Positions 10,397 to 34,776 of a DNA stretch of 53,459 nucleotides are shown here, piece after piece. Positions within the stretch are counted from its first letter, which is position 1. Each line of letters starts with the position of its first letter. Under the pieces are notes generated by a model. The model was not told the origin of the DNA and did not search any database. It saw only the letters and a program-made list of their open reading frames with translations. Source of the stretch: Ectothiorhodospiraceae bacterium. GTDB lineage: Bacteria; Pseudomonadota; Gammaproteobacteria; Nitrococcales; Aquisalimonadaceae. Both the position numbers and the translations under genes were made by a program. The stretch is taken from contig SKGQ01000022.1 in the NCBI GenBank assembly GCA_007117515.1, forward strand, positions 1 to 53,459, written 5' to 3'.

Positions 10397-10405
10397 GATA
10401 AATCA

Positions 10406-17180: not shown

Positions 17181-17541
17181 TTAAGGAAACACGGACGTAT
17201 TCCCACGCCTGCGCCCGAGACCGGTTTTGGTCATCTGGCAAGGCGCGGTGCCGGTTCGGTAGCCTCACTAAACACGGCAACCTGCTGCTGATCAGATGCG
17301 TAGGGCGGGTCAAGCGTAGCGGACCCGCGCGGTGTGATCCGTTATCGAATTGACCTGGCCAGCCGGTCTGCCCGGGTTTCCCGTTGCCTTAATTCTCTCG
17401 GGAGGCCCTGCTGCACCGGGATGCCTGACACCGCGTGCATTCGCTGCGCTTAATGCACCCTACACCTCGTGTTCAGCGCGCCTTGCCTGGGAAAAATTCG
17501 GACTCCAACGCAGGCGTGCAAATATATCTGTGTTTCCTTAA
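17181..17541. repeat. Element A copy 1 (TIR-bounded intergenic element, interrupted by element B)
   Basis: TTAAGGAAACACGGACGTATTCCCACGCCTGCG at left; reverse complement of right end is TTAAGGAAACACAGATATATTTGCACGCCTGCG; interior shared with 27877-28153 and 34409-34682. Confidence 0.75.
17299..17463. repeat. Element B copy 1, nested in element A copy 1
   Basis: CGTAGGGCGGGTCAAGCG..CGCGCGGTGTGATCCGT ... ACACCGCGTGCATTCGCTGCGCTTAATGCACCCTAC, same end motifs in opposite order to 31676-31802. Confidence 0.75.
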
Positions 17542-17582
17542 GTGATGGCCCCCTCCCCGGAGGAGGCCATCAGTCTGCCATG

Positions 17583-18632
17583 TTACGCCACGGTGATGGA
17601 CGTATCGGCGTAGACATCCTGAATGGCATTCAGCAGTTCGACGCCTTCGCGCATCGGGCGCTGGAACGCCTTGCGGCCGGAGATCAAACCAATGCCGCCG
17701 GCGCGCTTGTTGATTACCGCGGTGCGCACGGCCTGCTGCAGATCGTTTTCACCGGAACCACCGCCGGAGTTGATCAATCCAGCGCGACCCATCAGGCAAT
17801 TGGCCACCTGATAGCGCACCAGGTCAACCGGGTGGTCGGTGGTGAGGTCGGAGTAGACCTTCTTGTGGGTCTTGCCGAAGCCGATGGCATTATAGCCGCC
17901 ATTGTTCTCGGCCATTTTCTGCTTGACGATATCGGCATTCAGCGTCGCCGCAATGTGGTTCGCCTGGCCGGTAAGGTCAGCCGATACATGGTAATCGACG
18001 CCGTCCTTCTTGAACGCATTGTTCCGCAGATAGGCCCACAATACCGTCACCATCCCCAGTTCGTGGGCATGGGCGAAGGCTTCGCTGACTTCCTGAATCT
18101 GCCGGCGGGAGTCCTCGGAGCCGAAGTAGATCGTGGCGCCCACGGCGACCGCACCCATGTCGAAGGCCTGATCCACCGAAGCGAACATGGTCTGGTCGTA
18201 CATTTCCGGGTAGGTCAGCAACTCGTTGTGGTTGAGCTTGAGCAGGAACGGGATGCGATGGGCGTAAGTCCGGGACACGGAATGCAGCACGCCCAGCGTG
18301 GACGCGACCATGTTGCAGCCACCCTCGATCGCCAGCTTGCAGATGTTGGCCGGATCGAAGTAGGCCGGATTCGGGCCGAACGAGGCGGCGCCGGAATGCT
18401 CGATGCCCTGGTCCACCGGTAGTATCGACATGTAGCCGGTGCCACCCAGGCGGCCGGTGTTGAAGATCGTCTGCAGGTTGCGCAGCACGGCCGGCTTCAG
18501 ATCCTTCTGCGCGACCACGCGCTCGATGTAATCCGGACCCGGCAGTTGAATCTGATCACTGGTAATGCCCGTGCAGCGATGGCCAAGCAGGGTGTCTGCC
18601 TCTGCCCCCAGCAGCTTCTGAATGTCGGTCAT
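17583..18632 (-). CDS. class I fructose-bisphosphate aldolase (FbaB/DhnA-like)
   Basis: [62 protein letters not shown]; start chosen at MTDIQKLLG. Confidence 0.9.
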
Positions 18633-18997
18633 TCTGGTTAACTCCCCCGAAACGTTGCGTAAACCTCGGCCATGACGGCGCCGTCGTTTCTTGTCATGTT
18701 CGTGACCCGCGCAATCATGAAGTGTTGTTTCAGTGCGGCTGTCAGGCATGCGGCCCGCTTCAGTTTTTCCGCAAAGGGCCGAATTATAGGGAAGCCGGAC
18801 CGGAAGCGCACGGGTTGACGGTCGACAACTGTCGAAAAAGTCGCATTCCCGGCACTGAAATCAGGAATATCCGATACTTTGGTTATAGTTTCCGGTAGAT
18901 TTGAAGGCATCTGGTCGCGGTGAACTGACCACGGCAACCGACTGACGACACTGCCTGGCTGGATGTCTGCGGAAGCGACCGCGCTGTGGAACGATGG

Positions 18998-21190
18998 ATG
19001 AGCAATAGTCCCGACAACCAGACGAGCGGTTCGCGTGGCCGGCTCGACGGAGCGAAGGTTCTGGGACGTTCCCAGCGCACGGCGGAGCGTCGTCTGCTGG
19101 AATTGCTGCGCTCCGTGCTGGATTCCGCCGACACGCAATTGATGGCGCGGGTTGAATCCAGCGAGGACTTCGAGCTCTATACCGCACATCATCACCTTGC
19201 CACCGAACTGCGCCGCAAGCGCTTCACCATCGAGCAGCGGGTGATCGGTGCCTTGCACGATGCCATCCAGCAGCTGCGTGACAACGGTGCCGGCGCTACA
19301 CCGCACTCACCAGATCTGGCCTCCCTGAGTCTCGTGGCCAGCGATACGCTGGAGCGCGATCTTGCCCTAGAGGCCATCGTAGGCCGTGCCCGTCAGGCCA
19401 ACAAGCAGTCCCTTGGTTTCCTTTGTCAGCGTCTGGGCCATGTGGCCGCAGTCGACACGGTCGATGGCGGCAGTAATCCGGTGGATCCACGGCAACTGAC
19501 GGAGATGCTCAAGCGGGCGCTGGAGGATATCGAAGCTGAAATGCCGGCCTGGCTGGCGTTCTTCAGCCTGTTCGAGGAACGCCTCAGTCCGCAGCTCCCG
19601 GATTTCTATCGGGAACTGAATCGGCTGCTGGCTGATGCCGGCGCGAGCCTGCCGGAACCCGGTCGCTCCACGCCCAGACCGGCACCATCGGCATCGTCAC
19701 CCGAGGGCGGTTCGTCGACTTCCGCCGTCGCAGACTCGGCCGGCGAGGCCGGACAGCGCCTGGTCCAGGCGCTGGATGCCCTGATTCGCTCCGTGAGCGG
19801 CGAGAGCACGGTCACGGCGGCGCCCGGGACCGGCGGCGGTCCGCTGCCACGGGACCTGCTAGCGCAATTTGATGACGAGCAGGGCGATGAGCCCGGGCTT
19901 CCCGCCAGCATGCAGGATGTTGTTGCAGTGTTGTCCACGCTGCAGAACGCGCCCCGCGAGGCGGATAACGATGCTTCGGTTTACCTCCCGCCGGCGGTCA
20001 TCCGGCGGCAGGTCCGTGAAGGGCTGGTAGCCGGTTCCGGCGGCGAACGCATGGATCCGGCCCATTCCTGTGCCATCGAGATTGTCAGTCTGGTGTTCGA
20101 ATCCGTGCTCGAGCATCCGGACCTGCCCGACCGCATGAAGTCATCCATCGCCAGGCTGCAGATTCCCGTAGTGAAGGTCGCGCTGCTGGACCCCGCGTTG
20201 TTCAGCGAGCGATCACACCCGGCGCGGCGGCTGATCAACGAAATGACCCATGCAGCCGTGAGCTGGTCGCCGGCAGCCGCACCGGAGCAGGAATCCGACC
20301 CCTTGCTGCAGTGCATTGATGATGTGGTTGCGCAGATCCGGCGCGATTTCCGCAACGAGCTGGACGCCTTTCGTGACGCGCTGAAAACCTTCGAGGAGTT
20401 CCGCGCCAACGAGTTGCAGCGCGTGCGGCAGGTGGAGGCGCGGACCCGGGCGGTGGCCGAGGGCAAGGCACGGCTCAGCGAGGCGCAGGATCGTGCCGCC
20501 CGCGAGATTCGCGAGCGTTGCGCCGGCCTGCATGTGCCGCCTGCGGTGCAGGCGATACTCGAAGGACCATGGATGCGGGTCCTGTCCATGACCCTGCTGC
20601 GCGAGGGTGGCGAGAGTGATACCTGGCGGCGCTACCTGAGAACTGTCGAACGGCTGCTGGATACCGTGCAGTTCAGCAGCGATCACGAAGAGCGGCGCGA
20701 TCTGGTGTTGAAGATTCCGGGCGTCCTGAAGGAGCTCCGCGCCGGAGCCAATGGCATCATGTTCGATAGTTCGCGCATGACCGAATTGCTGGAGGCTCTC
20801 GAAGCAGCCCACATCGACGCCCTGACGCGGCCGCTGAGTGATGCACCCCCGTCGGAGGAGCAACCGGGGCCGTGCGCGGCGGAACCAGAGCCACCGAGCG
20901 CGGAGCTGGAAGCGTATCTCGTTGCAGTCGACGCCTTGCCGGTGGACTGTTGGCTGGAGTGGCGGCCGGAAGGTCATGACCCGGTGCGTTGCCGGCTGGC
21001 CGCCCGATTCTCCGGCGGGGCCTGGCTGGTCCTGGTGAACCGCGCCGGCTTCCGACTGGCGGAGTTGCCACGTCGGGCGATGGCCGAGGAACTGGCCGGC
21101 GGTCGCCTGCGTCAACTCGATGATGGAGCGCTGTTCGACAAGGCCCTAGGCCAGGTCGTAACGGAACTGCGGAAGCGGGCGAGCGCCTAG
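18998..21190 (+). CDS. DUF1631 family protein
   Basis: About 730 aa helical protein; N-terminal LELLRSVLDSADTQL and C-terminal PVDCWLEW..GHDPVRCRLAARFSGGAWLVLVNRAGFRLAEL resembling DUF1631 proteins. Confidence 0.7.
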   Translation: MSNSPDNQTSGSRGRLDGAKVLGRSQRTAERRLLELLRSVLDSADTQLMARVESSEDFELYTAHHHLATELRRKRFTIEQRVIGALHDAIQQLRDNGAGATPHSPDLASLSLVASDTLERDLALEAIVGRARQANKQSLGFLCQRLGHVAAVDTVDGGSNPVDPRQLTEMLKRALEDIEAEMPAWLAFFSLFEERLSPQLPDFYRELNRLLADAGASLPEPGRSTPRPAPSASSPEGGSSTSAVADSAGEAGQRLVQALDALIRSVSGESTVTAAPGTGGGPLPRDLLAQFDDEQGDEPGLPASMQDVVAVLSTLQNAPREADNDASVYLPPAVIRRQVREGLVAGSGGERMDPAHSCAIEIVSLVFESVLEHPDLPDRMKSSIARLQIPVVKVALLDPALFSERSHPARRLINEMTHAAVSWSPAAAPEQESDPLLQCIDDVVAQIRRDFRNELDAFRDALKTFEEFRANELQRVRQVEARTRAVAEGKARLSEAQDRAAREIRERCAGLHVPPAVQAILEGPWMRVLSMTLLREGGESDTWRRYLRTVERLLDTVQFSSDHEERRDLVLKIPGVLKELRAGANGIMFDSSRMTELLEALEAAHIDALTRPLSDAPPSEEQPGPCAAEPEPPSAELEAYLVAVDALPVDCWLEWRPEGHDPVRCRLAARFSGGAWLVLVNRAGFRLAELPRRAMAEELAGGRLRQLDDGALFDKALGQVVTELRKRASA

Positions 21191-21214
21191 GGAAACACTA
21201 AAGGAGTCGCTGCG

Positions 21215-22000
21215 TTGCTGGCCAACCTCCGGCGTCTGGTTCGGATTCCCATTCTGTTTCTGCATGTCATCCTCGGGGTTGTCGTGATCCCCGGCTGTGT
21301 TGCCATTGATCGTCTGCTGCGACGGCCGCTGCACGGCGGACTGGGCCGTCGGGCCCAGGCCTTCTGGTGTCGCAGCATCTGCTGGTTGCTTGGCATACGC
21401 ATCCGTCACGCCGGAGAGAAAATAGCCGATCCACCGGTGCTGCTGGCCGCGAATCATGTCTCCTGGCTCGACATCCTGGTGATTCTGGCGGACTACCCGG
21501 TGAGCTTTCTCAGCAAGGAAGAGGTGCGCCGCTGGCCCGGTATCGGCTTTGTCGCGACCTGCCTGGGTACGCTGTATGTACAGCGCGGCAATCCCCGGGC
21601 GGCGCCGAAAGTGGTGGCCGATATGGGCGAGCGACTGCGCCTTCCCGATCGCGTGGCCTTCTTTCCCGAGGGCACCACGACCCGGGGCACGGACCTGCTG
21701 CCGCTGAAGCATCGACTGTTTCAGGCCGCGATTGATGCCGAAGTACCGGTGCAGCCCCTTCTGCTGCGCTATCTGAACCCGGACGGCAGCGTCAACGGCC
21801 GGGCGCCCTTCGTTGATAACCAGCACCTCATTGCCCAGGTCATCCGGCTCGCCGGTGAACCGCTGGTGGAGGTGCGACTGATCGCGGGGGCGCCACTGAC
21901 CAGCGCCGGGCATGATCGCGCCAGCCTGCGCGACGCGGTGGAACGTCACCTGCGTGACATGTTGTTGTCACAAAACGGTCACAAGGTTTCTATTCAATGA
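21215..22000 (+). CDS. 1-acyl-sn-glycerol-3-phosphate acyltransferase-like (PlsC family)
   Basis: NHVSWLD (NHxxxxD), FPEGTTTRG; TTG start with AAGGAG 8 nt upstream. Confidence 0.9.
   Translation: MLANLRRLVRIPILFLHVILGVVVIPGCVAIDRLLRRPLHGGLGRRAQAFWCRSICWLLGIRIRHAGEKIADPPVLLAANHVSWLDILVILADYPVSFLSKEEVRRWPGIGFVATCLGTLYVQRGNPRAAPKVVADMGERLRLPDRVAFFPEGTTTRGTDLLPLKHRLFQAAIDAEVPVQPLLLRYLNPDGSVNGRAPFVDNQHLIAQVIRLAGEPLVEVRLIAGAPLTSAGHDRASLRDAVERHLRDMLLSQNGHKVSIQ
21965..21982 (+). promoter_or_regulatory. Pho box upstream of phoB
   Basis: TTGTCAC-AAAA-CGGTCAC, two half-sites 11 bp apart, inside the 3' end of the acyltransferase gene. Confidence 0.65.
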
Positions 22001-22032
22001 CGCCGAACCAGTGAGCAGGGAGCTGTATCGGC

Positions 22033-22719
22033 ATGACCGTCAAGATCCTGATCGTCGAAGACGAGGCCCCCATCCGCGAAATGGTGGTCATGGCGCTGAG
22101 CGCCGCCGGCTATGAAGTGCACGAGGCGGAGTCCGGCGAAGAGGGGTTTGCCCTGCTGAACGAGCACGTGCCGGATCTGATCCTGCTCGACTGGATGTTG
22201 CCCGGCATGAGCGGCATCGACTTTTCGCGGCGGATCAAGAAGGACCCGCTGTGCAGCGAGATTCCCATCATCATGCTCACCGCCCGCGGCGAGGAAGAGG
22301 ACAAGGTGCGCGGGCTCGAGTCCGGCGCCGATGACTTCGTGACCAAGCCGTTCTCGCCGCGGGAACTGACCGCGCGGATCAAGGCGGTGCTGCGCCGGGC
22401 CTCGCCGATGAGTGCCGAGGAAGTGGTGGAGGTGGACGGTCTGCGGCTCGACCCGGTGAGTCACCGGGTCAGCGTCGACGAGTCTGCGGTGGATATGGGC
22501 CCCACTGAATTCCGCCTGCTGCATTTCTTCATGACTCATCCGGAACGCGTCTATACCCGCGGTCAGTTACTGGATAACGTGTGGGGCATGAACGTGTATG
22601 TGGAGGAACGGACCGTTGACGTACATATTCGCCGCCTGCGCAAGTCCATCGCCCGAACCGGACATGATCGTCTGGTGCAGACGGTGCGCGGTGCCGGCTA
22701 CCGTTTTTCCGTCAAGTAA
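22033..22719 (+). CDS. phoB: phosphate regulon response regulator PhoB
   Basis: [58 protein letters not shown]; winged-helix C-terminus [30 protein letters not shown]. Confidence 0.96.
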
Positions 22720-22744
22720 TGAACGGCCACTGCCCGGCTGAGTC

Positions 22745-24190
22745 ATGCGCCTGCTCCCGCGACGCGCCGCCCCAGGCGTGAAACCTCCTTTCGCAGGCCG
22801 GTCTCCCTGGCCTGCCGTTTTCCTGCGGCTGCTACTGGTTACGACAGTCTCTGCGGGCTTCGGCTTTCTGCTTGGTCACGTGGTGCTGGGCCTGTTCCTG
22901 GGTACCGCCGCCTACCTGGCCTGGAATATCCACAATCAGGTGCAGCTGGAGCGCTGGCTGCGACAGGGGCGCACGCTGGAGCCACCGGATTCCAGGGGTC
23001 TCTGGGGAGATATCTTCAACGGCATTCATCGTCTGCAGCGACGCCAGCGTGGCCGTCGGCGCAAGCTGGCGAAGCTCCTGCAGGGCATCCGTGAAAGCAT
23101 CAATGCCATGCCCGATGCCGCTGTCATCCTGCGCGAGAACGGCGAAATCCAGTGGTGGAACGAGCCGGCCCGGGACATGCTGGGCCTGCGCTGGCCGCAG
23201 GATGAGGGCCAGCGCATTGCCAATCTGTTCCGGCACCCGGAGTTTGCTGTCTTCGTGCGTCGCGAGGCAGCGGAAGCGGCGTCTCTTACCGTGCCGTCTC
23301 CGGTGGACGAGGACATGATCCTCGAAATCCGCCTGATCCCCTATGCCGAGAACCAGCGCTTGATGCTGGCCCGGGATATCACGCGCCTGCATCGGCTGGA
23401 GCGCATGCGACGGGATTTCGTGGCCAATATCTCCCACGAGCTGCGCACACCGCTGACGGTGATCCAGGGTGTCTCCGAAAGCCTGGGCGATCGACTTGGT
23501 GACAGTGACGCGCAGGCCCAGCGCGCCCTGGAATTGATTCATCAGCAATCGCTGCGCATGGATCGGCTGGTCGAGGACCTGCTGATGCTGTCCCGACTGG
23601 AAACCGAGGAGAAACCGGTGGAAATGACGCCGGTGAACATGCCGCAGCTGCTGCGGCTGCTCGGCGAAGAGGCGCGCACCCTGAGCGGCGATCGCGAGCA
23701 CCAGATCATGCTGGACGTGGATCCAGGGCTGTGGATCCGCGGAGAGGAATCGGAGCTGCGCAGCGCGCTGTCGAATCTGGTGTTCAATGCGGTCAAGTAC
23801 ACGCAGCCGGGTGGCAGCATTCATGTGCTCTGGCAACGGCGCGGCAACCGGGCTTATTTCCGGGTCAAGGACAATGGCCCCGGGATTCCGGCACAGCACC
23901 TGTCACGTCTGACCGAACGTTTCTACCGGGTCGACGCCGGTCGCTCCTCCCGCACCGGCGGTACCGGCCTGGGGCTCGCCATCGTCAAGCATGTGCTCGG
24001 TCGTTACGGCACCCGACTCCAGATCCGTTCGGAAGCAGGGCAGGGAAGCCGCTTCAGCATCACGTTTCCGGAAAGAATTACACTACCGGAAGTGTTCAGT
24101 GATTCAGGTTTCAGTGATGAAGGTAGAAGTGATTCAGGTTTCAGTGTTCAGTTTTCAGACAAGGAAAAAGATCAAACAAACGCTGGTTGA
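22745..24190 (+). CDS. phoR: phosphate regulon sensor kinase PhoR
   Basis: FVANISHELRTPLTVIQGVSESL, NLVFNAVKYTQPGG, VKDNGPGI, GGTGLGLAIVKHVL; adjacent to phoB. Confidence 0.95.
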   Translation: MRLLPRRAAPGVKPPFAGRSPWPAVFLRLLLVTTVSAGFGFLLGHVVLGLFLGTAAYLAWNIHNQVQLERWLRQGRTLEPPDSRGLWGDIFNGIHRLQRRQRGRRRKLAKLLQGIRESINAMPDAAVILRENGEIQWWNEPARDMLGLRWPQDEGQRIANLFRHPEFAVFVRREAAEAASLTVPSPVDEDMILEIRLIPYAENQRLMLARDITRLHRLERMRRDFVANISHELRTPLTVIQGVSESLGDRLGDSDAQAQRALELIHQQSLRMDRLVEDLLMLSRLETEEKPVEMTPVNMPQLLRLLGEEARTLSGDREHQIMLDVDPGLWIRGEESELRSALSNLVFNAVKYTQPGGSIHVLWQRRGNRAYFRVKDNGPGIPAQHLSRLTERFYRVDAGRSSRTGGTGLGLAIVKHVLGRYGTRLQIRSEAGQGSRFSITFPERITLPEVFSDSGFSDEGRSDSGFSVQFSDKEKDQTNAG

Positions 24191-24275
24191 TACCGCTGAA
24201 TTTGGCGCGACTTCCGTGTCTCGGTGACCACCGAGGCCGCCCTGTCTGAACACTGAAAACTGCTTGTCTGAAACC
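24092..24275. repeat. TTTCAGTG-type simple intergenic repeat, dyad-arranged
   Basis: gtgttcagtgattcaggtttcagtg..gattcaggtttcagtgttcagttttcagacaagg opposite cctgtctgaacactgaaaactgcttgtctgaaac. Confidence 0.6.
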
Positions 24276-24278
24276 TCT

Positions 24279-24307
24279 TCATGAAGCCGCTTGAAGCGGC
24301 TTCATGA
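24279..24307. repeat. perfect 29-nt palindrome between phoR and pstS
   Basis: TCATGAAGCCGCTTGAAGCGGCTTCATGA. Confidence 0.8.
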
Positions 24308-24309
24308 GG

Positions 24310-24338
24310 TCGTCACTCCCCCTTCACAGTCCTGTCAC
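24310..24338 (+). promoter_or_regulatory. Pho-box array upstream of pstS
   Basis: TCGTCAC-tccc-CCTTCAC-agtc-CTGTCAC, three half-sites at exact 11-bp spacing. Confidence 0.7.
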
Positions 24339-24426
24339 ACTTGCTCCCCATACTCCGAATCGTTCTCGGGCTCTCACCGGGAAAGCGCAGCTCAACGATT
24401 GCGAACGCGTAAAACGGAGTATTCCA

Positions 24427-25410
24427 ATGATCAAGCATTCCCTGGCCGGCCTGATTACGGCCGCGACGATGTCCGCCTTCAGCTTGACCGCCATGGCCGA
24501 ACAGCAGACGCAGGTCGACCCTGATCTGCCGACCTACGAAGGTACCTCGGGCGTGTCCGGCAACCTGACCTCCATCGGGTCCGATACGCTGAACAACCTG
24601 ATGACCCTCTGGGCCGAGGAATTCAACAGCTTCTACCCGAACGTCAACGTCCAGATACAGGGTGCCGGCACCGGCACCGCGCCGCCGGCCCTGGCTGAGG
24701 GTACCTCCCAGTTCGGCCCGATGAGCCGCACCATGCGCAGCAGCGAAGAAGCGGAGTTCGAAGGTGCCCACGGCTATCCGGCCACCCCGGTGCGTGTGGC
24801 CATCGATACCATCGCCGTGTTCGTGAACCGCGATAACCCGATCGAAGGCATGACCATCCCCCAGGTGGATGCGGTGTTCTCCTCCACTCGTCGCTGTGGT
24901 GCCGCCGAAGACATCACCCGCTGGGGGCAACTCGGTCTGGATGGCAGCTGGGCCAATCGTGACATCACGATCTACTCGCGTAACGCCGTGTCCGGTACCT
25001 ACGGCTTCTTCCGCCAGAACGCGCTCTGCGACGGCGATTTCAAGGACTCCATCAACGAGCAGCCGGGTTCCGCCTCGGTGGTCCAGGGCGTGACCGAGTC
25101 GCTGAACGGCATCGGCTACTCCGGTATCGGTTATGAAACCTCGGGTGTCCGTGCGATCCCGCTGGCCCACGACGAGGACAGCGTGATGGCCGAAGCCAAT
25201 GCGGAAAACGCTGCCTCGGGTGATTATCCGCTGGCCCGTTTCCTGTACGTCTACGTCAACAAGAACCCGGAGCGTCACCTCGAGCCGCGCGTTGGCGAGT
25301 TCCTGAAGCTGGTGCTCTCCAGGCAGGGTCAGGAAGTGACCGTGCGTGACGGCTTCATCCCGCTGCCGGCCGCCGTTGCGGCGCAGGAGCGCGAGAACCT
25401 GGGACTCTGA
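24427..25410 (+). CDS. pstS: phosphate ABC transporter substrate-binding protein PstS
   Basis: Signal peptide, IGSDTLNNLMTLWAEEFNSFYPNVNVQIQGAGTGTAPPAL, GPMSRTM; first gene of pst cluster. Confidence 0.94.
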   Translation: MIKHSLAGLITAATMSAFSLTAMAEQQTQVDPDLPTYEGTSGVSGNLTSIGSDTLNNLMTLWAEEFNSFYPNVNVQIQGAGTGTAPPALAEGTSQFGPMSRTMRSSEEAEFEGAHGYPATPVRVAIDTIAVFVNRDNPIEGMTIPQVDAVFSSTRRCGAAEDITRWGQLGLDGSWANRDITIYSRNAVSGTYGFFRQNALCDGDFKDSINEQPGSASVVQGVTESLNGIGYSGIGYETSGVRAIPLAHDEDSVMAEANAENAASGDYPLARFLYVYVNKNPERHLEPRVGEFLKLVLSRQGQEVTVRDGFIPLPAAVAAQERENLGL

Positions 25411-25433
25411 ACCGGTCCCTGGAAAGCTCTCAA

Positions 25434-25459
25434 GGCCCCGCCCCGGCGGGGCCTTTTTG
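25434..25459 (+). terminator. rho-independent terminator after pstS
   Basis: GGCCCCGCCCCGGCGGGGCC followed by TTTTTGT. Confidence 0.85.
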
Positions 25460-25470
25460 TCTCCGGAGTG

Positions 25471-25510: not shown

Positions 25511-25564
25511 TCAGCGTCCGTAGCATCCGCCGTAATTGCCATTCACTGATCGTGAGATTGCCGC

Positions 25565-27880
25565 ATGAGTGAGTCATCCAGTCAGGCCGGTACCGCAAGC
25601 GGCTCCGTCCGCAGCCTGTTGCCGAGCGGTGCCGCCCGTGCCCGTCTGCGGCGCTGGCGCGGTGCCAAGGATTTCATGGCGAAGGTTCTGGTCGCCACCT
25701 TCGGCGTTGCCGTGGTCGGCGCGCTGGCACTGATCTTCATCTATCTGTTCAGCGAGGTCATGCCGCTGCTGCAGTCCGCGGACAGTGATGCACGGGCCAG
25801 CTATGCCGCCCCTGGTGGCGACGATGTCGGCACAGTGCACGTTGCGTCCAACCGGCATCGGTCTCTGGCGGTGCGTTTCACCGACGATCGTCGTGCGGTG
25901 TTCTTCGTGCCGCTGACCGGTGAGGTGACCAAGTCCGTGGATCTACCTCTGCCGGAGGACAGTGAAGTCACTGCGCGGGCGCAGGCAGAGCCTCGGACGC
26001 GGATTTCCGCGTATGGGCTCGACAGCGGTGAAGTGCTGATCGTCGAGCAGGTTTTCGATGAGCGTTTCGAGGGTGGTGAGCGGCACGTTGACGGGGATAT
26101 CCGCTTTCCGAGGGAAACCGAGGACGGGCCCCTGCTGGATATTGCCGGCGATGGCACGGCTGTCAGTCAGCTCGCGATCCAGCGGGGTTCTGGTGGTACC
26201 CAGCTTGCCGTGGCGCTGGCGGATGGTCGCCTGGAACTGATCAACTTCGAGGAAACCACTTCGTTCATGACCGGCGAGTCCACCGTCGAGGTCAAGCGCT
26301 TCAGCCTGGATAAGCCGCAGGACGTCACCATTACCCGCATGTTGCTGGACATTACCGGTCGCGTAATGCTGGTCGGCGACGATTCGGGCCAGGTGCACTA
26401 TTACAACATCGCGCGGCCGGAGAACGCGCGGCTGGTCAACACCCGGCATGTGCTGGAAGCGGATGATGCAGAGGTCTCCGCGATGGAGTTACTGCTCGGC
26501 TCACAGTCGTTGATCGTCGGTGGCACCGACGGCAGCGTGAGCCAGTGGTTCCTGGTGCGTGATGACGACAACGTGCGCCGGCTGACCCGGGTGCGTGGTT
26601 TCGATGGCCATGGCGCGCCGATTCGCACCATTGCGCCGGAATACGGCCGCAAGGGTTTCGCGACGGCGGATGAGCAGGGTGAGGTCAAACTGCATTACTC
26701 GACCTCGGAACGCACCCTGATGCAACGCCAGGTTGCCGACGGCAAGTCGGTTCACACCCTGTCGTTCGCGCCGCGGGCGAACGCCCTGTACGCCGTCGAT
26801 GCCGACGAGCAACTGCACGTACTCGATGTGCGCAATGAGCACCCGGAGGTGTCGGTGGGGGCGCTCTGGAGCAAGGTCTGGTACGAGGGTCGCTCCGAAT
26901 CCGATTATGTCTGGCAGTCGTCCTCGGCCACCGATGAATTCGAACCCAAGTTTTCGCTGGTGCCGCTCACCGTGGGCACGCTGAAGGCAGCCTTCTACGC
27001 CATGCTGTTCGCAACGCCGCTGGCGATCATGGGCGCCATCTACACCGCCTACTTCATGTCGCCGCGCATGCGCACGACGGTGAAACCCACCATCGAGATC
27101 ATGGAGGCCCTGCCCACGGTCATCCTCGGTTTCCTGGCCGGCCTCTGGCTGGCGCCGTACGTCGAGGCCAATCTGCCGTCGGTGTTCTCCATCCTGTTGC
27201 TGGTACCGCTCAGCATGCTGGTGTTCGCCTTCCTCTGGACTCGCGTGCTGGGCAGTGCCGTCAGACGCGTGATTCCGGACGGCTGGGAAGCGGCGTTATT
27301 GATTCCGGTGGTGCTGCTGGTCGGTTGGTTCTGCGTTTCCATGAGCCCGGTCATCGAGAATCTGTTTTTCTCCGGAGACATGCGGCAGTGGTTGACCGAT
27401 GTCGGTATCACCTATGACCAGCGCAACGCCCTGGTGGTGGGTATTGCCATGGGCTTTGCCGTGATCCCGACCATCTATTCCATCTCCGAGGATGCCGTTT
27501 TCAACGTGCCGAAGCATCTGACCCAGGGCTCCCTTGCGCTGGGCGCGACGCCCTGGCAGACCATGGCCAAGGTGGTGCTGCTGACAGCCAGCCCCGGGAT
27601 CTTCTCGGCGGTGATGATCGGCTTCGGTCGCGCCGTCGGCGAGACCATGATCGTGCTCATGGCCACCGGCAACAGTCCGGTCGTCAACTTCAATATCTTC
27701 GAGGGCATGCGCACGCTCTCCGCCAACATTGCGGTGGAAATGGGCGAGACCGCAGTCGGTGGCACCCACTACCGGATCCTGTTCCTGGCGGCCCTGGTGC
27801 TGTTCATTCTGACTTTCGTCCTGAACACCGCGGCGGAACTGGTGCGCCAGCGCCTGCGCCGCAAGTACAGCTCACTTTAA
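25565..27880 (+). CDS. pstC: phosphate ABC transporter permease PstC with large N-terminal domain
   Basis: 771 aa; C-terminal permease EALPTVILGFLAGLWLAP, SLALGATPWQTMAKVVL, GRAVGETMIVLMATGNS; N-terminal repeat-rich domain between TM segments. Confidence 0.93.
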   Translation: MSESSSQAGTASGSVRSLLPSGAARARLRRWRGAKDFMAKVLVATFGVAVVGALALIFIYLFSEVMPLLQSADSDARASYAAPGGDDVGTVHVASNRHRSLAVRFTDDRRAVFFVPLTGEVTKSVDLPLPEDSEVTARAQAEPRTRISAYGLDSGEVLIVEQVFDERFEGGERHVDGDIRFPRETEDGPLLDIAGDGTAVSQLAIQRGSGGTQLAVALADGRLELINFEETTSFMTGESTVEVKRFSLDKPQDVTITRMLLDITGRVMLVGDDSGQVHYYNIARPENARLVNTRHVLEADDAEVSAMELLLGSQSLIVGGTDGSVSQWFLVRDDDNVRRLTRVRGFDGHGAPIRTIAPEYGRKGFATADEQGEVKLHYSTSERTLMQRQVADGKSVHTLSFAPRANALYAVDADEQLHVLDVRNEHPEVSVGALWSKVWYEGRSESDYVWQSSSATDEFEPKFSLVPLTVGTLKAAFYAMLFATPLAIMGAIYTAYFMSPRMRTTVKPTIEIMEALPTVILGFLAGLWLAPYVEANLPSVFSILLLVPLSMLVFAFLWTRVLGSAVRRVIPDGWEAALLIPVVLLVGWFCVSMSPVIENLFFSGDMRQWLTDVGITYDQRNALVVGIAMGFAVIPTIYSISEDAVFNVPKHLTQGSLALGATPWQTMAKVVLLTASPGIFSAVMIGFGRAVGETMIVLMATGNSPVVNFNIFEGMRTLSANIAVEMGETAVGGTHYRILFLAALVLFILTFVLNTAAELVRQRLRRKYSSL

Positions 27881-28153
27881 GGAAGCGCTGAAGTATGCAC
27901 GCGCCTGCGTTGGAGTCCGCATTTTTCACGAGGCAAGGCGCGCTGCGCAGCGCCGCAGTCATTCTGCGGTCAAGCAGCGCAACGCGGCATTCGGGAAAAA
28001 TGCGGCCCAACCCGAAGGGCCCGGCCGGTTTTGGCCCCTGGCGGCGTTGCGCCACCGGCCCGGTAGACCCACTACCGGACCGTCACCGCGCCTTGCCAGA
28101 TGACCAAAACCGGTCTCGGGCGCAGACGCGGGAATACTTCAGCGCTTCCTTAA
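27877..28153. repeat. Element A copy 2 (277 bp) between pstC and pstA
   Basis: TTAAGGAAGCGCTGAAGTAT ... ATACTTCAGCGCTTCCTTAA perfect 20-bp TIR; interior matches the other copies. Confidence 0.85.
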
Positions 28154-28187
28154 TCGGTCGACACGGACTCCGAGGCAAGGAAAGGCA

Positions 28188-29855
28188 ATGAATAACTGGT
28201 TCAAGAGCGGAACGCCCTGGGTCTGGCTGAACGCCGGTGCCGTCAGTGTGAGCCTGATCATGGTGGTCGGTCTGTTGCTGATGATTGCGGTCAACGGACT
28301 GGGTCACTTCTGGCCGCAGGCGGTGGTCGAGTTCGACTATGGCGAGGGTGAGGACGCCGGGACTCAAAGGGTTCTGGGGGAAATCAGTCGTTCCGAAACC
28401 ATGACCGCTGCCGCCATGCGTGATGCCGGTTACACGGTGCCCGAGGACCAGACGGTCGTGACACGGCATCTGGTCAAGCGTGGCAACCGCGATGCCACGG
28501 GCCGGGATTTCGTCTGGTACATCGGCGAGAACGCCAGCGAGTTTCGTTATCCGGATAACGCCATGGTGCTGGAGCGGCTGACCTGGGGGGATCTGATCGG
28601 TTACCTCAAGGACTACCGCGAGGGCGGCGAAGTGGTTGCCGAAGGCGAAGCGGCCCGGGACGTCTTTGCCGAACGCCTCGAGCAGACGCGTTCCAGCGTT
28701 CAGGAGATCGAGCGCATCGAGCGCTTCGAGATCGGTGCGGTGAATTACGAGATCGAGCAGATCCGCCTGCAGCAGCGCGCGCTGGAGATCAATCCGCAAC
28801 TGTCTGATACGGAGCGTGCAGAGCAGAGTGCGGTACTGGACGAGCTGCGGGCCGGCTTCGAGGAGCAGTATGCCGAGCTGGAAGAGCGCCGCAACGCCCT
28901 GCGACAGGATGTTCGCCGCTACAGCATCACCGCGGAACTGATGGATGGTCGTGAACAGGAAGTGGTGCTCGCCGATATTGTCCGCGCCACCTGGCCCAAC
29001 GCCATGGGGTTCGGTGCAAAGATCAGTCACTACGGCAGCACGTTCTGGGATTTCGTCAGCGGTTTCCCGCGTGAAGCCAATACGGAAGGCGGCATCCTGC
29101 CTGCGATTTTCGGCACGGTGCTGATGGTGATCATCATGTCCATTGTGGTGACGCCGTTCGGTGTTCTGGCGGCGATCTATCTGCGTGAATACGCCAGGCA
29201 GGGGCCGCTGGTGCGCACCATTCGTATTTCCGTGAATAACCTGGCGGGGGTGCCGTCCATCGTCTTCGGCGTGTTCGGTCTGGGCTTCTTTGTCTACTTC
29301 CTGGGCGGCAGTATCGACCGCACCTTCTATCCAGAGGCGCTGCCCGCGCCAACCTATGGCAGTCCGGCGATCATCTGGGCTTCGCTGACCCTGGCCCTGC
29401 TGACGCTGCCGGTGGTGATTGTCTCCACCGAGGAAGGCCTGTCGCGCATTCCCAGCACCATCCGTCAGGGCAGTCTGGCCCTGGGTGCAACCAAGGCCGA
29501 GACCCTGTGGCGCATCGTCGTGCCGCTGGCCGCGCCGGCGATGATGACCGGGCTGATCTTGGCTGTGGCCCGCGCCGCCGGTGAGGTGGCTCCGCTGATG
29601 CTGGTGGGTGTGGTCAAGCTGGCGCCGAACCTGCCCCTCGACGGCAACTTCCCGTTCCTGCACCTGGACCGGGCCTTCATGCATCTCGGCTTCCATATCT
29701 ACGACGTCGGCTTCCAGAGCCCCAACGTCGAGGCCGGTCGGCCGCTGGTCTACGCCACGGCGCTGATCCTCGTGCTGCTGATCATGATCCTGAACGTGAC
29801 GGCAATCTCGATCCGCAACTATCTGCGCGAGAAGTACAAGAGCGACAGCGATTAG
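28188..29855 (+). CDS. pstA: phosphate ABC transporter permease PstA
   Basis: GVPSIVFGVFGLGFFVYFLGGS, GSLALGATKAETLWRIVVP, ARAAGEVAPLMLVG; long N-terminal extension. Confidence 0.94.
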   Translation: MNNWFKSGTPWVWLNAGAVSVSLIMVVGLLLMIAVNGLGHFWPQAVVEFDYGEGEDAGTQRVLGEISRSETMTAAAMRDAGYTVPEDQTVVTRHLVKRGNRDATGRDFVWYIGENASEFRYPDNAMVLERLTWGDLIGYLKDYREGGEVVAEGEAARDVFAERLEQTRSSVQEIERIERFEIGAVNYEIEQIRLQQRALEINPQLSDTERAEQSAVLDELRAGFEEQYAELEERRNALRQDVRRYSITAELMDGREQEVVLADIVRATWPNAMGFGAKISHYGSTFWDFVSGFPREANTEGGILPAIFGTVLMVIIMSIVVTPFGVLAAIYLREYARQGPLVRTIRISVNNLAGVPSIVFGVFGLGFFVYFLGGSIDRTFYPEALPAPTYGSPAIIWASLTLALLTLPVVIVSTEEGLSRIPSTIRQGSLALGATKAETLWRIVVPLAAPAMMTGLILAVARAAGEVAPLMLVGVVKLAPNLPLDGNFPFLHLDRAFMHLGFHIYDVGFQSPNVEAGRPLVYATALILVLLIMILNVTAISIRNYLREKYKSDSD

Positions 29856-29908
29856 ATCCGACTTCGGCAGGCGGGCCAGGCTCGCCCCACACTGATTGAG
29901 AGAGAACC

Positions 29909-30763
29909 ATGGTGCCAACGATGAAAGATGAGAACCGCGTGCTGACCCACGGCATGGATCCGGCAGCGATGCGTGGCAAAGGCAGCGAGAAGCTGTTGAT
30001 AAGCCGCGAAACTCCGGCCATGGAAATCAAGGATCTGAAGCTCTACTACGGCAAGGAAATGGCGCTGAAGGGCGTGGACCTGACCATCCCCAAGGGTCGC
30101 ATCACCGCTTTCATTGGTCCCAGCGGCTGCGGCAAATCAACCCTGCTGCGCTGCATGAACCGCATGAATGACCTGATCGATATCGCCAGGATCGAGGGTG
30201 AAGTCCTGCTGCATGGCGACAATATCTATGATGCCGGCGTGGACGTCGCGGAGCTTCGACGCCGCGTGGGCATGGTGTTCCAGAAGCCGAACCCCTTTCC
30301 GAAATCGATCTACGAAAACGTGGCCTATGGACTGCGCCTGCAGGGCGTCAAGAATCGTCGGATACTGGACGAGGTGGTGGAGCAGTCACTGCGTCGCGCG
30401 GCCTTGTGGGATGAGGTCAAGGACCGCCTGAACGAGAACGCCTTCGGCCTCTCCGGCGGTCAGCAGCAGCGCCTGGTCATCGCCCGGGCCGTGGCCATCG
30501 AGCCGGAAGTCCTGCTGCTCGACGAACCGGCCTCGGCCCTTGACCCACTGGCGACGCTGAAGATCGAAGAGCTGATGTTCGAACTGAAAGACGAGTACAC
30601 CATCGCCATCGTCACCCACAACATGCAGCAGGCCGCCCGCGTCTCGGATTACACGGCCTTCATGTACATGGGCGAAATGGTCGAGTTCGCCGACACCGAC
30701 ACGCTGTTCACGTCGCCGGCGAAGAAGCAGACGGAGGATTACATTACGGGCCGCTATGGCTAG
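29909..30763 (+). CDS. pstB: phosphate ABC transporter ATP-binding protein PstB
   Basis: Walker [10 protein letters not shown], signature LSGGQQQR, Walker [30 protein letters not shown]. Confidence 0.97.
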
Positions 30764-30784
30764 CGGCCCGTGCGTTTTAAGTGT

Positions 30785-30832
30785 GAGGTTTTAGGTTTTA
30801 CGTAAAACATTAAACGTCAAACCTAAAACGTT
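30785..30832. repeat. AAACGTAAAAC-type simple dyad repeat between pstB and phoU
   Basis: gaggttttaggttttacgtaaaacattaaacgtcaaacctaaaacg. Confidence 0.6.
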
Positions 30833-30840
30833 CCCGGAAA

Positions 30841-30858
30841 CTGTCTGGAAATCGTCAG
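30841..30858 (+). promoter_or_regulatory. weak candidate Pho box upstream of phoU
   Basis: CTGTCTG-gaaa-TCGTCAG, degenerate half-sites at 11-bp spacing. Confidence 0.3.
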
Positions 30859-30894
30859 CGATTCAATTCGGTCCAGCCGACCATCGAGGCCACC

Positions 30895-31617
30895 ATGGAT
30901 AAATCCTTTTTTGCCCAACACATCTCCCAGCAGTTCAACGAGGAGCTGGAGGAAATCGTCAACCGGGCCATGGCAATGGGTGGCCTGGTGGAGCAGCAGC
31001 TTGGTGATGCCATGCTCGGCCTGGCCGAGGGTGATATCGGGAGCGCCGAGTTGGTGGTGACCCGGGATTACCAGGTCAACGCCATGGAGGTGGCCCTGGA
31101 CGAGGAGTGCACGCACATCCTCGCACGACGTCAGCCCACGGCCAGCGATCTGCGGTTGGTTATGGCGGTGATCAAGACCATCACCGATCTGGAGCGCATC
31201 GGTGACGAGGCGGAGCGCATCGGCAAGATGGCCCTGCACCTGCTGGAGAAAGATCGCGAACAGAATCCGATGGCCGAGATTGCGGCCCTCGGCGAGTACG
31301 TGCGCCGAATGCTGCATAACGCCCTGGATGCCTTCGCCCGCATGGACACGGATCAGGCGGTACGCACCGCGCAGATGGACTTCAGTGCTGACAGTCAGTA
31401 CGAGGAGGTCATGCGCCAGTTGCTGAAGCGTATGCGCGACGACCCGGAGTCCATACCGCGGATCATGGACATGGTCTGGGCGGTACGGTCGCTGGAACGG
31501 ATCGGAGATCGCTCGCGGAACATCTGTGAGTACGTAATCTACTTCGTGCTTGGCAAGGACGTGCGCCACATCAGTTTCGAGCAGATGGCGGAAGAGGCCA
31601 CCGGCGACAGGCGCTAG
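30895..31617 (+). CDS. phoU: phosphate signalling regulator PhoU
   Basis: Helical repeats with ARRQPTASDLRLVMAVIKTITDLERIGDEAERI and VRSLERIGDRSRNICEYVIY. Confidence 0.95.
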   Translation: MDKSFFAQHISQQFNEELEEIVNRAMAMGGLVEQQLGDAMLGLAEGDIGSAELVVTRDYQVNAMEVALDEECTHILARRQPTASDLRLVMAVIKTITDLERIGDEAERIGKMALHLLEKDREQNPMAEIAALGEYVRRMLHNALDAFARMDTDQAVRTAQMDFSADSQYEEVMRQLLKRMRDDPESIPRIMDMVWAVRSLERIGDRSRNICEYVIYFVLGKDVRHISFEQMAEEATGDRR

Positions 31618-31675
31618 TTCGCACGCCCGCGCTTGACCCGGCCTGCACCAAGCCGAGCATCCGCGGCTCGTAGCT

Positions 31676-31802
31676 CGTAGGGTGCATTAAGCGCAGCGAA
31701 TGCACGCGGTGTGATCCGCCACGATTATGGCAACAGGCTTTCGGCCGAAACGCCGCCAACGGATCACACCGCGCGGGTCCGCTGCGCTTGACCCGCCCTA
31801 CG
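31676..31802. repeat. Element B copy 2
   Basis: CGTAGGGTGCATTAAGCGCAGCGAATGCACGCGGTGTGATCCG ... CGGATCACACCGCGCGGGTCCGCTGCGCTTGACCCGCCCTACG. Confidence 0.75.
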
Positions 31803-31861
31803 CCTCTGAATATCCGCCGGGGTTTTGTGGGGCGCGGACGCGGGAATTGCCCGGCGTTTTA

Positions 31862-32821
31862 TTATTCCCGGTCCAGGGAGATGTCGCGGTAGGAGCGCGG
31901 ATCCTCCACCGGCTCCAGGTGCGTGATGACGCTGGCGCCGTTGAAGCGATCCTGGATGGCGGTTTCTATGGCGTCGGCGACATCGTGGCCGCGTTGCACG
32001 GTCCAGTCTCCCGGCATCAGCACATGCATGGAAATAAACCGCCGGGCCCCGGACTGCCGCGTCCGCAGGGCGTGGAAATCCACGTCATGGCGTCGACCGT
32101 AGTGGTCAAGAATGCGCTGGATTTCGGCAATCTCGTGCTCATCAAGCGCACTATCCATCAGGCCGTTCACCGAGCGGATAAACACCTTCCAGCCGGTGTA
32201 ACTGATGTTGGCTGCCACCAGCAGCGCGATCAGCGGGTCAACGATATACCAGCCGGTGACCGCCACCACGGCCACGCCGCCGATGACGCCCACCGAGGTC
32301 CAGACATCGCTCATCAGGTGATGGCCGTCCGCCTCCAGCGTGATCGATTCCTCGCGTCGTCCGGCTCCAAGCAGGACCCGCGCGGCGATCAGATTGATCA
32401 GGGTGGCGACCACTGACAACGCCAGGCCGACGACCGGCATTTCAATGGGTTGCGGGTCCAGCAGGCGGTTCACGGCAATCACGGTGATGCCGACGGAGGC
32501 TATCAGGATGAGCGCGCCTTCAAGGCCGCTGGAGAAATACTCCGCCTTGTCGTGTCCATACTGATGATCGTGATCCGCGGGTCGCGCGGCGATACCCAGC
32601 ATTACCAGTGCCATGATGCCGCCGGCAAGATTGACCACCGATTCGGCGGCGTCGGACAACAGGCCTACCGATCCGGTCAGCCACCAGGCGAGGGTTTTCA
32701 GCGCGATCACCAGCAGCGAGGCCGCGATTGACAGCCAGGCGAAGCGCACCAGCGCCCGACGTCGTTTCAGACGGGCTGAGTCCTGCGAGTCATTGACGCC
32801 GGAACGGCTTTGTTGCTGCAT
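31862..32821 (-). CDS. cation diffusion facilitator (FieF-like)
   Basis: SVGLLSDAAESVVNLAGG, DHDHQYGHDKAEYFSSGLEG, EADGHHLMSDVWTSVGV, DPLIALLVA. Confidence 0.93.
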   Translation of the reverse strand: MQQQSRSGVNDSQDSARLKRRRALVRFAWLSIAASLLVIALKTLAWWLTGSVGLLSDAAESVVNLAGGIMALVMLGIAARPADHDHQYGHDKAEYFSSGLEGALILIASVGITVIAVNRLLDPQPIEMPVVGLALSVVATLINLIAARVLLGAGRREESITLEADGHHLMSDVWTSVGVIGGVAVVAVTGWYIVDPLIALLVAANISYTGWKVFIRSVNGLMDSALDEHEIAEIQRILDHYGRRHDVDFHALRTRQSGARRFISMHVLMPGDWTVQRGHDVADAIETAIQDRFNGASVITHLEPVEDPRSYRDISLDRE

Positions 32822-32963
32822 GGTCTTCTAGTGGACTGAATGCGTTACGGCACAATACCAAGGATGTATCGTGCGGAGTCGTTTTTGCCGAGGTTTCAGA
32901 AAAGTGTACCAGTTCAGTCCTATTTGGAATATCAACAGGGATTCAGTACGGGGGCAGTATTCA

Positions 32964-33536
32964 ATGAAAAGCATCTCAATGCGTCTTGCGCTGGCCGCTT
33001 CGCTGGCCATCTTCGGTCTGGCGCCGGCTGTTCACGCGCAACAGGATTTTTCGTCCGACGTCGGCCAGACGGAGGGCACCATTCCGGACCGCGAGCGGGA
33101 TCAGGGGGAACTCGAACGGTTCGAAGACTGGAACGTCTATTGCGAGGATTTCGAGGAGGACGGCGAAACCATCCGTGCCTGCGAGATGCTGCAGCGGGTA
33201 ACGGTGGAGGAAACCGGCGAAATCATCATGGAGGTCGTGGTCGGTTACATGCCGGATCGGGGCATGCCGATGGCCCTGTTCTCGGTGCCGCTGGGTATCC
33301 GTCTGCAGCCGGGCCTGGAGTTGCAGGTCGATGATAATGAGCCGGTGCGTATCGGCGTCGACATCTGCGGCGCCGATGGTTGCATGGCCTCGATGCTGTT
33401 CGATGATGACATGTTGCAACAATTTCGCCAGGGTGCCGCTGGCACCGTGACCATCCGTGATGCCCGCAACCAGACCTTCGATCTGCCGATCTCGATGATG
33501 GGTTTCACCGCCGCCCTTGACCGGATCATGGAGTGA
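32964..33536 (+). CDS. invasion-associated locus B (IalB) family-like secreted protein
   Basis: Signal peptide; FEDWNVYCEDFEEDGETIRACEMLQRV, PLGIRLQPGLELQVD, VDICGADGCMASMLFDDDML resemble IalB. Confidence 0.72.
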   Translation: MKSISMRLALAASLAIFGLAPAVHAQQDFSSDVGQTEGTIPDRERDQGELERFEDWNVYCEDFEEDGETIRACEMLQRVTVEETGEIIMEVVVGYMPDRGMPMALFSVPLGIRLQPGLELQVDDNEPVRIGVDICGADGCMASMLFDDDMLQQFRQGAAGTVTIRDARNQTFDLPISMMGFTAALDRIME

Positions 33537-33544
33537 TTGTACCG

Positions 33545-34033
33545 ATGAGTGTGTTGCTACGTGTTGCTGGACTCTGTTCTGCCCTGGCCTTGCTGACCGT
33601 GGCGTTTGCCCCGGCAGCGGTGGCGGAGGAAATCAGGATCCATGATCCCTGGGTGCGTTGGGTGCCGGAGGTGTCCGAGCGCACCGCCGCGTACATGCGC
33701 ATTGAGGCGCCGGAAGGGGAGCGAAAGATCTTGATCGGCGTCGACAGCCCGCAGTTCGACCGCGCCGAGATCCACGAATCAGTGGATGAGGACGGGCGAG
33801 CTCGCATGGTGCATTGGTCGACCTTGCGAATCCCGGCCGGTGGCGAACGGGTGCTGGAGCCAGGCGGCTACCACATCATGCTGATCGGCCGGCTCGGTGA
33901 CGCCCTGGAGGAAGGCGATGTGGTCGAACTGCAGATGCGTTTCCAGAGCGGCGAGATTCTGATGGTGGACATGCCCGTGTCACGCGATGGCGTGAACGGT
34001 GATGACGATCACGAGCACCATCACCACCACTGA
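33545..34033 (+). CDS. PCu(A)C-like copper chaperone with His-rich C-terminus
   Basis: Signal peptide; IRIHDPWVRWVPEVSERTAAYMRIEAP, AEIHESVDEDGRARM, LEPGGYHIMLIG; terminal DDDHEHHHHH. Confidence 0.8.
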   Translation: MSVLLRVAGLCSALALLTVAFAPAAVAEEIRIHDPWVRWVPEVSERTAAYMRIEAPEGERKILIGVDSPQFDRAEIHESVDEDGRARMVHWSTLRIPAGGERVLEPGGYHIMLIGRLGDALEEGDVVELQMRFQSGEILMVDMPVSRDGVNGDDDHEHHHHH

Positions 34034-34091
34034 TGGTTGATGGCGTGAACCTGTCCGGCCACACCCCTGAAGCAGGAATGAAGTTTGAATG

Positions 34092-34218
34092 CTGGTAAGG
34101 ACAGTGGAAGTTTTCGGCTGGCCCTGTTGAACCGGAGGTTCGTCAGGCCAGACGGAAGCTTGCGCTGGCCAAAACGTTATCGGAAAAGCTCCCAGCCCCG
34201 TGCCGTGTGAGGACAAGC
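34092..34218. repeat. Element C copy 1 (apparently uninterrupted)
   Basis: ctggtaaggacagtggaagttttcggctggccctgttgaaccggagg / ttcgtcaggccagacggaagcttgcgctggcc..tcggaaaagctcccagccccgtgccgtgtgaggacaag. Confidence 0.65.
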
Positions 34219-34272
34219 TTTTTCCGTCCTCGCGTCGCTTTGCTCCGAAGGGGCCGGAAAAAGCTTCTCCTC
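34209..34272. repeat. 18-nt near-perfect inverted repeat
   Basis: GAGGACAAGCTTTTTCCG ... CGGAAAAAGCTTCTCCTC. Confidence 0.7.
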
Positions 34273-34366
34273 CCCCGGCACTCAGCGCCAACCGGTATGT
34301 CAGTGCGGGCCCGGATCGCGTCGGATGTCGGGGATTCCGTCCGGACGAAGCAACACGACCCTCGGA

Positions 34367-34766
34367 CTGGTAGGGCAGTGGAAGTTTTTTCTTGGCCCTG
34401 TTGGACCAGAGGAAACACTGAGCTATTCCCACGTTCGCGCTCGAGTCCGATTTCGGCAGCCTGGCAAGGCGCGGTGCCGGTTCGGTAGCCCGAGCTACCG
34501 GGCCGGTAGCGCAACACCGCCAGGGGCCGAAATCGGCCGAGCCCTTCGGGTTGGGCTGGCATTTTCCCCGACTGCTGCGTTGCGCTGCTTGGCCGCAGAG
34601 CGACTGCGGCACGGCACACCGCGCCTTGCCTCGTGAAAAATGTCAGCTCAACGCGAGCGCGGGAATAGCTCAGTGTTTCCTCCAGCGACGTCGCGCCAGA
34701 CGAAAGCTTGCACTGGCCCCGATCCTGTCGGAAAAGCACAGAGCCCCCGTGCCGTGTGATGACAGG
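34367..34766. repeat. Element C copy 2, interrupted by element A copy 3
   Basis: ctggtagggcagtggaagttttttcttggccctgttggaccagagg then element A then cgccagacgaaagcttgcactggcc..tcggaaaagcacagagcccccgtgccgtgtgatgacagg. Confidence 0.65.
34409..34682. repeat. Element A copy 3
   Basis: GAGGAAACACTGAGCTATTCCC ... GGGAATAGCTCAGTGTTTCCTC TIR; interior matches the other copies. Confidence 0.85.
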
Positions 34767-34776
34767 ATTCAGCCCC

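What the first reader, a model, noticed from the sequence alone, without database searches (positions are those of the whole stretch)
17181..34682. Element A: TIRs covary within a copy but differ between copies
Three intergenic elements (17181-17541, 27877-28153, 34409-34682) share interior sequence around GGCAAGGCGCG. The two ends are distinguishable: one carries CCCGAGACCGGTTTTGGTCATCTGG, the other GTTGGAGTCCG(C)ATTTTTCACGAGG. The outermost bases differ between copies yet match within a copy: copy 2 has GGAAGCGCTGAAGTAT at both ends, copy 3 has GGAAACACTGAGCTAT at both ends. This suggests selection for terminal pairing as an RNA or DNA hairpin, or end-to-end homogenisation during mobilisation. 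No transposase is encoded, so a non-autonomous MITE/REP-like family is plausible.
Basis: partly seen in the sequence, partly recalled or inferred. Interest (0 to 1): 0.72.

Follow-up and report, generated by a model that had tools for sequence, protein, structure and literature searches.

The report
IS5-type MITE with self-matching ends
The three repeats belong to a family of about a hundred short, gene-less jumping DNA elements that fold into a Y and resemble elements moved by a known type of transposase (IS5); oddly, the two ends of each copy change together even though the stretch between them does not follow, which suggests that the ends are copied onto each other around the time the element moves.

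Summary
Confirmed, and extended from three copies to about 130. The element (269-353 bp) is one of roughly 80-100 in a 2.4-Mb draft genome (168 TIR hits, 0 in control). It is shared with Methylonatrum kenyense and an Ectothiorhodospiraceae MAG, and at 72-77% identity with other genera of the family. It is an IS5-group MITE: TIR GGAARCRCTGANNTATTC, 4-bp TTAA/CTAG target duplication, empty sites in sister genomes, no transposase gene, and an IS5-family IS with like TIR and duplication in family mates. The outermost TTAA/CTAG symmetry is only a palindromic target duplication. The inner TIR covariation is real: the two ends of a copy agree more than any shuffle (z 5-12 in four genomes), and at variable positions at 0.90, against 0.73 for the same end of the nearest relative by core. 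Two-sided v one-sided changes are 157:164 in the terminal stem but 31:160 and 29:210 in the two inner hairpins. G.U mismatches show no strand bias (63 v 55), so RNA selection is unlikely. The matched end type does not follow the core tree. Best reading: a new IS5 MITE family whose ends are homogenised at or around transposition; that last step is inferred.

The parts
17181..17541 (-). Copy 1 with its TTAA target duplications; element proper 17185-17537. A-type end at the high-coordinate side, B-type end at the low side. Interior carries an extra GTAG-type palindromic repeat (about 17299-17463).
   Evidence: empty site in G002
27877..28153 (+). Copy 2 with its TTAA target duplications; element proper 27881-28149. 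Lies between pstC (25565-27880) and pstA (28188-29855); the left TTAA contains the pstC stop codon.
   Evidence: empty sites in G001 and G002
34411..34680 (-). Copy 3, diverged subfamily, inside a larger composite intergenic repeat shared with L086, L062, L034 and G002 L262.
27881..27898 (+). Copy 2 terminal inverted repeat, A end (GGAAGCGCTGAAGTATGC)
28132..28149 (-). Copy 2 terminal inverted repeat, B end (GGAAGCGCTGAAGTATTC)
34411..34428 (+). Copy 3 terminal inverted repeat, B end (GGAAACACTGAGCTATTC)
34663..34680 (-). Copy 3 terminal inverted repeat, A end (GGAAACACTGAGCTATTC)

Best explanation
A non-autonomous IS5-group transposable element (MITE). It carries no transposase. An IS5-family DDE transposase supplied in trans would recognise the terminal GGAARCRCTGANNTATTC and insert the element at a YTAR site (TTAA or CTAG), duplicating 4 bp. 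Positions 4, 5, 7 and 12-14 of the terminal repeat are tolerated by the transposase and vary. In each copy these positions agree at both ends because the two ends, held together as the base of the Y-shaped hairpin or abutted as a junction or tandem palindrome around transposition, are homogenised by copying one end from the other; afterwards each end decays on its own. SHOWN: the family, copy number, TIR, target duplication, empty sites, an IS5 relative with like ends and duplication, within-copy covariation, its near-restriction to the terminal stem, absence of G.U strand bias, independence of the matched end type from the core tree. INFERRED: the transposase acting in trans, and the homogenisation step and its timing.
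For: MITE: 168 terminal-pattern hits v 0 control in the own genome; 50 of 127 copies with exact 4-bp duplication, 24 TTAA and 18 CTAG; empty sites; IS5-family IS of 1.2 kb in G004 and G011 with GGAARCGCTGATYTA ends and YTAR duplications. Covariation: within-copy match beats all 10,000 shuffles in four genomes. Not inheritance with the core: own other end 0.905, nearest relative's same end 0.73; matched end type changes 29 times on the core tree v 30-32 shuffled. End-specific: two-sided v one-sided 157:164 in the terminal stem, 31:160 in arm A, 29:210 in arm B (sums). Not strand-specific: 63 v 55. Two-sided changes are present in copies without arm mismatches, so they predate decay. Abutted ends occur in tandem copies (L157), and L269 is a 64-bp element with the A-type end on both arms. 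The autonomous IS varies at overlapping positions without matched ends.
Against: No active transposase was found in the own genome. The one clear orthologous insertion (L333/L346) shows one-sided terminal differences only, and copies with no arm mismatches already have about 6% terminal mismatches, so homogenisation is incomplete. In the composite family of copy 3, two-sided differences (position 14 T/T v A/A) seem to have arisen after insertion. Linkage of ends to core columns is absent only in the middle of the element, as core exchange between copies would also give. Only one A-A palindrome was found in four genomes.
Confidence: 0.55

Rival explanations
1. Same MITE, but no copying of ends: matched end types are inherited from several master elements, each adapted at both ends to a different IS5 transposase variant, and ectopic gene conversion between copies has since exchanged the cores, so that end type and core no longer go together.
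For: Linkage of the ends to core columns is present near both ends and vanishes in the middle. End types differ between lineages: AGT prevails in G001 and G011, TTT in G000 and G002. The autonomous IS of G004 and G011 differ at positions 4, 5 and 7 of their ends.
Against: Needs at least 12 matched types at positions 12-14 among 58 copies, each with its own two-sided change. The IS5 relatives have unmatched ends, so the transposase does not demand equal ends. Some two-sided states are seen in single copies only, such as T or C at position 7.
Confidence: 0.27
2. Ordinary quasi-palindrome correction: replication template switching keeps the arms of any inverted repeat alike in resident copies, independent of transposition.
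For: The mechanism is established (PMC7202029, PMC8794818). Terminal mismatch rises little with the age proxy (Spearman 0.19, p 0.06). The composite family of copy 3 shows two-sided differences in copies with shared flanks.
Against: The two inner hairpins, with far shorter loops, should be corrected at least as well, yet two-sided change there is rare. One-sided mismatches are not rarer in the terminal stem than in the arms. The one orthologous pair shows no two-sided change.
Confidence: 0.12
3. The element acts as a structured RNA, and selection on pairing in the transcript keeps the ends complementary.
For: Very stable predicted folds. The strand with the B end 5' is the more stable in 81 of 90 copies, mean 11 kcal/mol, against 4.4 +/- 5.8 for shuffles. 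Frequent A/B differences at positions 21 and 24 would be G.U on that strand.
Against: Among varying terminal pairs G.U on one strand and on the other are equally common, 63 v 55. Two-sided change is nearly confined to the terminal stem. No Rfam family matches. The strand bias in stability is shared by descent and not independent.
Confidence: 0.06

Closest known systems
MITEPsy1 / ISPsy2 (IS5 family), Pseudomonas syringae (PMC3189936)
   Same: Short element without transposase, IS5-type 18-nt TIR beginning GGAA, 4-bp target duplication CTAG or YTAA; transposition of MITEPsy1 was observed.
   Different: 100 bp and 6 copies with identical ends; no Y fold or within-copy covariation in the passages read; TIR sequence otherwise different.
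REPINs (REP doublets, moved by RAYT) (PMC3116915)
   Same: Many small intergenic mobile hairpins; compensatory changes on the two sides of the hairpin are reported as common.
   Different: No target duplication; Y1 tyrosine transposase. Here DDE-type duplication and TIRs, no Y1 transposase in the own genome, and covariation sits in the terminal repeats, not in the spacer hairpin.
MITEAba12 and QMITE2 (PMC6382973, PMC10969869)
   Same: Multi-copy bacterial MITEs related to an IS through their TIRs only; QMITE2 has a stable predicted fold.
   Different: Target duplications of 9 and 7-9 bp, so other parent IS; no end covariation in the passages read.
Quasi-palindrome template-switch mutation (PMC7202029, PMC8794818)
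   Same: Makes the two arms of an inverted repeat alike in one step.
   Different: Expected for all hairpins; here nearly restricted to the terminal stem.

Membership tests
IS5-group MITE | Short, non-coding, no transposase, many copies | tested here: met
   269-353 bp; 168 terminal hits in the own genome; no transposase inside (ORF list and sequence)
IS5-group MITE | TIR shared with an IS of the group | tested here: met
   GGAARCGCTGATYTA ends of the PF01609/PF05598 IS in G004 and G011
IS5-group MITE | 4-bp YTAR target duplication | tested here: met
   TTAA 24, CTAG 18 of 50 exact duplications; empty sites
IS5-group MITE | Parent transposase in the same genome | tested here: not met
   None in G000; not strictly defining, the genome is a 97% draft and the transposase may be lost
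IS5-group MITE | Mobilised in trans by an IS5 transposase | not testable with these tools
   Needs a transposition assay
REP / REPIN | Y1 (RAYT) transposase in the genome | tested here: not met
   None in G000 or G001; one each in G002 and G003
REP / REPIN | No target duplication | tested here: not met
   4-bp duplications present
Structured RNA | Match to a known RNA family | tested here: not met
   Only two tRNAs in the window
Structured RNA | One-strand G.U tolerance in varying pairs | tested here: not met
   63 v 55 in the terminal stem; 56 v 56 on a second alignment

The most novel reading that the evidence does not exclude
Transposition of this MITE goes through an intermediate in which its two ends are base-paired or abutted and one end is rewritten from the other, so that each new insertion carries a freshly matched pair of ends that is not tied to its core: end homogenisation as a by-product of IS5 transposition.
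Probability: 0.3. Interest if true: 0.7.

Novelty: new variant of a known kind. Interest (0 to 1): 0.45.

Why it matters
Covariation of paired bases is usually read as proof of a functional RNA stem. Here about 130 copies show it without strand bias and almost without covariation in the inner stems, so the family is a natural warning case for such tests. The intermediate of IS5 transposition is, to my knowledge, not settled; a family whose ends record end-to-end contact at each move would give it a sequence read-out and a simple experimental test.

Tried and rejected
(1) Plasmid and phage collections: no match. (2) Autonomous partner in the own genome by PF01609, PF05598 and the G004 transposase: none. 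(3) RNA reading by strand stability: a bias exists but the copies are related and shuffles are biased the same way; the G.U count was preferred. (4) RNAalifold on the mixed alignment gave a poor structure; replaced by Watson-Crick-only folds per genome. (5) Orthologous insertions as a direct test: one clear case, L333/L346; L046/L239 proved to be separate insertions in the same neighbourhood. (6) A-A or B-B palindromes as traces of end copying: one A-A case in four genomes. (7) Papers on a three-way-junction MITE: none; on concerted ends of bacterial MITEs: none relevant. (8) Private symmetric states: 6 v 0.4 expected, but at least two are mis-assigned ends, so not relied on.

Full report
WHAT IS THERE. 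The three elements exist at the stated places. Without their flanking duplications they measure 353, 269 and 270 bp. Each folds as a single strand into a Y or long hairpin: a terminal stem built by the two ends and, in copies 2 and 3, two inner hairpins, arm A and arm B (z -10.0, -9.5 and -11.9 for copies 1, 2 and 3). Copy 2 has 17 of 18 and copy 3 has 18 of 18 terminal positions matching between its ends; copy 1 only 14 of 18; between copies 11-15 of 18 match.

THE FAMILY. In the window's own genome (2.4 Mb, 210 contigs, 97% complete) copy 2 found 40 places, itself included, with only 40 of 233 candidates scored. The pattern TGGCAAGGCGCG occurs 77 times against 2 in the control, and the terminal pattern TARGGAARCRCTGANNTATTC 168 times against 0. 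Many copies lie at contig ends, so they probably broke the assembly. The family at up to 92-94% identity fills two genomes of the genus: Methylonatrum kenyense AMT 1 (G002) and the MAG Ectothiorhodospiraceae T3Sed10_218 (G001) (identified by equal contig lengths). At 72-77% identity over the full length it occurs in G003 of the genus and in G005, G006 and G011 of the family. It was not found in plasmids or phages.

WHAT MOVES IT. Among 127 copies with both flanks, 50 have an exact 4-bp direct repeat (TTAA 24, CTAG 18; shuffled partners give 20 on average), and inverted similarity of the flanks stops sharply after the fourth base. The outermost symmetry is thus a palindromic target duplication. 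Sister genomes have empty sites: G002 lacks copy 1, and G001 and G002 lack copy 2. Copy 2 landed at the TTAA at the end of pstC, keeping its stop codon, inside the pst operon. A 1.2-kb IS5-family IS (PF01609 and PF05598) in family mates G004 and G011 has ends GGAARCGCTGATYTA and YTAR duplications (CTAA/CTAA or TTAG/TTAG in three of the four G004 copies). No relative of its transposase was found in the own genome; G002 keeps a degenerate fragment. The family is therefore an IS5-group MITE, close in kind to MITEPsy1, a 100-bp element with CTAG or YTAA duplication that was seen to transpose (PMC3189936).

THE COVARIATION. Variable terminal positions are 4, 5, 7 and 12-14. Within each well-sampled genome the two ends of a copy agree more than in any of 10,000 shuffles (z 7.0, 7.6, 11.8 and 4.7 for G000, G001, G002 and G011). 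This is not simple subfamily inheritance: for the nearest relative by core (mean 95% identity) the same end agrees at 0.73 and the opposite end at 0.71, while the copy's own other end agrees at 0.905. On a tree of cores the matched end type changes 29 times, against 30-32 for shuffled labels, although the tree carries signal (genome label 23 v 40). The two ends are thus tied to each other but scarcely to what lies between them.

WHERE IT IS AND IS NOT. Counting changes per pair with Watson-Crick-only folds per genome, two-sided and one-sided changes are about equal in the terminal stem: 157 v 164 over four genomes. In arm A they are 31 v 160 and in arm B 29 v 210 (sums). A general tendency of hairpins to be corrected, or selection on the whole fold, should have affected the arms as well. 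Mismatches in terminal pairs that would be G.U on one strand or on the other are balanced (63 v 55), which speaks against selection on a transcript. The autonomous IS varies at overlapping positions but its ends are not matched to each other.

MECHANISM. The reading I rank first is that the ends are homogenised at or around transposition, when they are paired or abutted. Tandem copies that share one duplication (G001 L157) show that abutted ends occur. A 64-bp element with the A-type end on both arms (L269) looks like one end copied onto the other. Against it: the one orthologous insertion found shows one-sided differences only, young copies already have some mismatches, the composite family around copy 3 seems to show two-sided change after insertion, and linkage of ends to the core that is lost only in the middle would also follow from exchange of cores between copies. 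I hold this combined reading at 0.55; the MITE part alone at about 0.9.

COMPARISON. As a thing it is a new member of a known kind. REPINs already offer compensatory change in mobile hairpins (PMC3116915), and template switching is a known route to it (PMC8794818, PMC7202029). What I did not find reported in the held library is covariation nearly confined to the terminal repeats of an IS5 MITE and uncoupled from the core; that is why I file it as a variant. The library is not the whole literature.

LIMITS. The own genome and G001 are draft MAGs; G002, an isolate, gives the strongest signal. Copies are related by descent, so shuffles are not strict tests. A few ends were mis-assigned in degenerate copies. 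The sampling of copies favoured those similar to copy 2.

Noticed in passing
1293-1389 and 10320-10416: Two identical tRNA-Thr(CGT) genes with 99% identical 97-bp surroundings flank a type IV minor-pilin and PilY1 cluster; possibly a pilin cassette exchanged at a tRNA.
   Followed up: partly
31676-31820, and nested in copy 1 at about 17299-17463: A GTAGGG-type palindromic repeat resembling GTAG-tagged REPs (PMC3733652). It forms the extra interior of copy 1, and copy-1-like elements of about 360 bp recur in G002. No Y1 transposase in the own genome.
   Followed up: partly
34096-34290 and 34372-34770: A composite intergenic repeat, once without and once with a MITE (copy 3) inside; same flanks around L086, L062, L034 and G002 L262.
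   Followed up: partly
30773-30830: An AT-rich palindrome (GTTTTAGGTTTTACGTAAAAC...) in the pst region; similar AT-rich stretches lie beside MITE copies L088, L028, L029 and L087.
   Followed up: no
27877-28153: The MITE lies inside the pst operon between pstC and pstA; a fold this stable could lower expression of the downstream genes (inference). Copy 2 is closest to G001 copies in core (94%) and end type, so it may have come from that lineage.
   Followed up: no
L267, L268, L269, L270-L273 (G001, G002): Deletion derivatives: 50-64-bp hairpins made of the ends alone, and copies with only arm A or only arm B, in several cases still with matched ends.
   Followed up: partly
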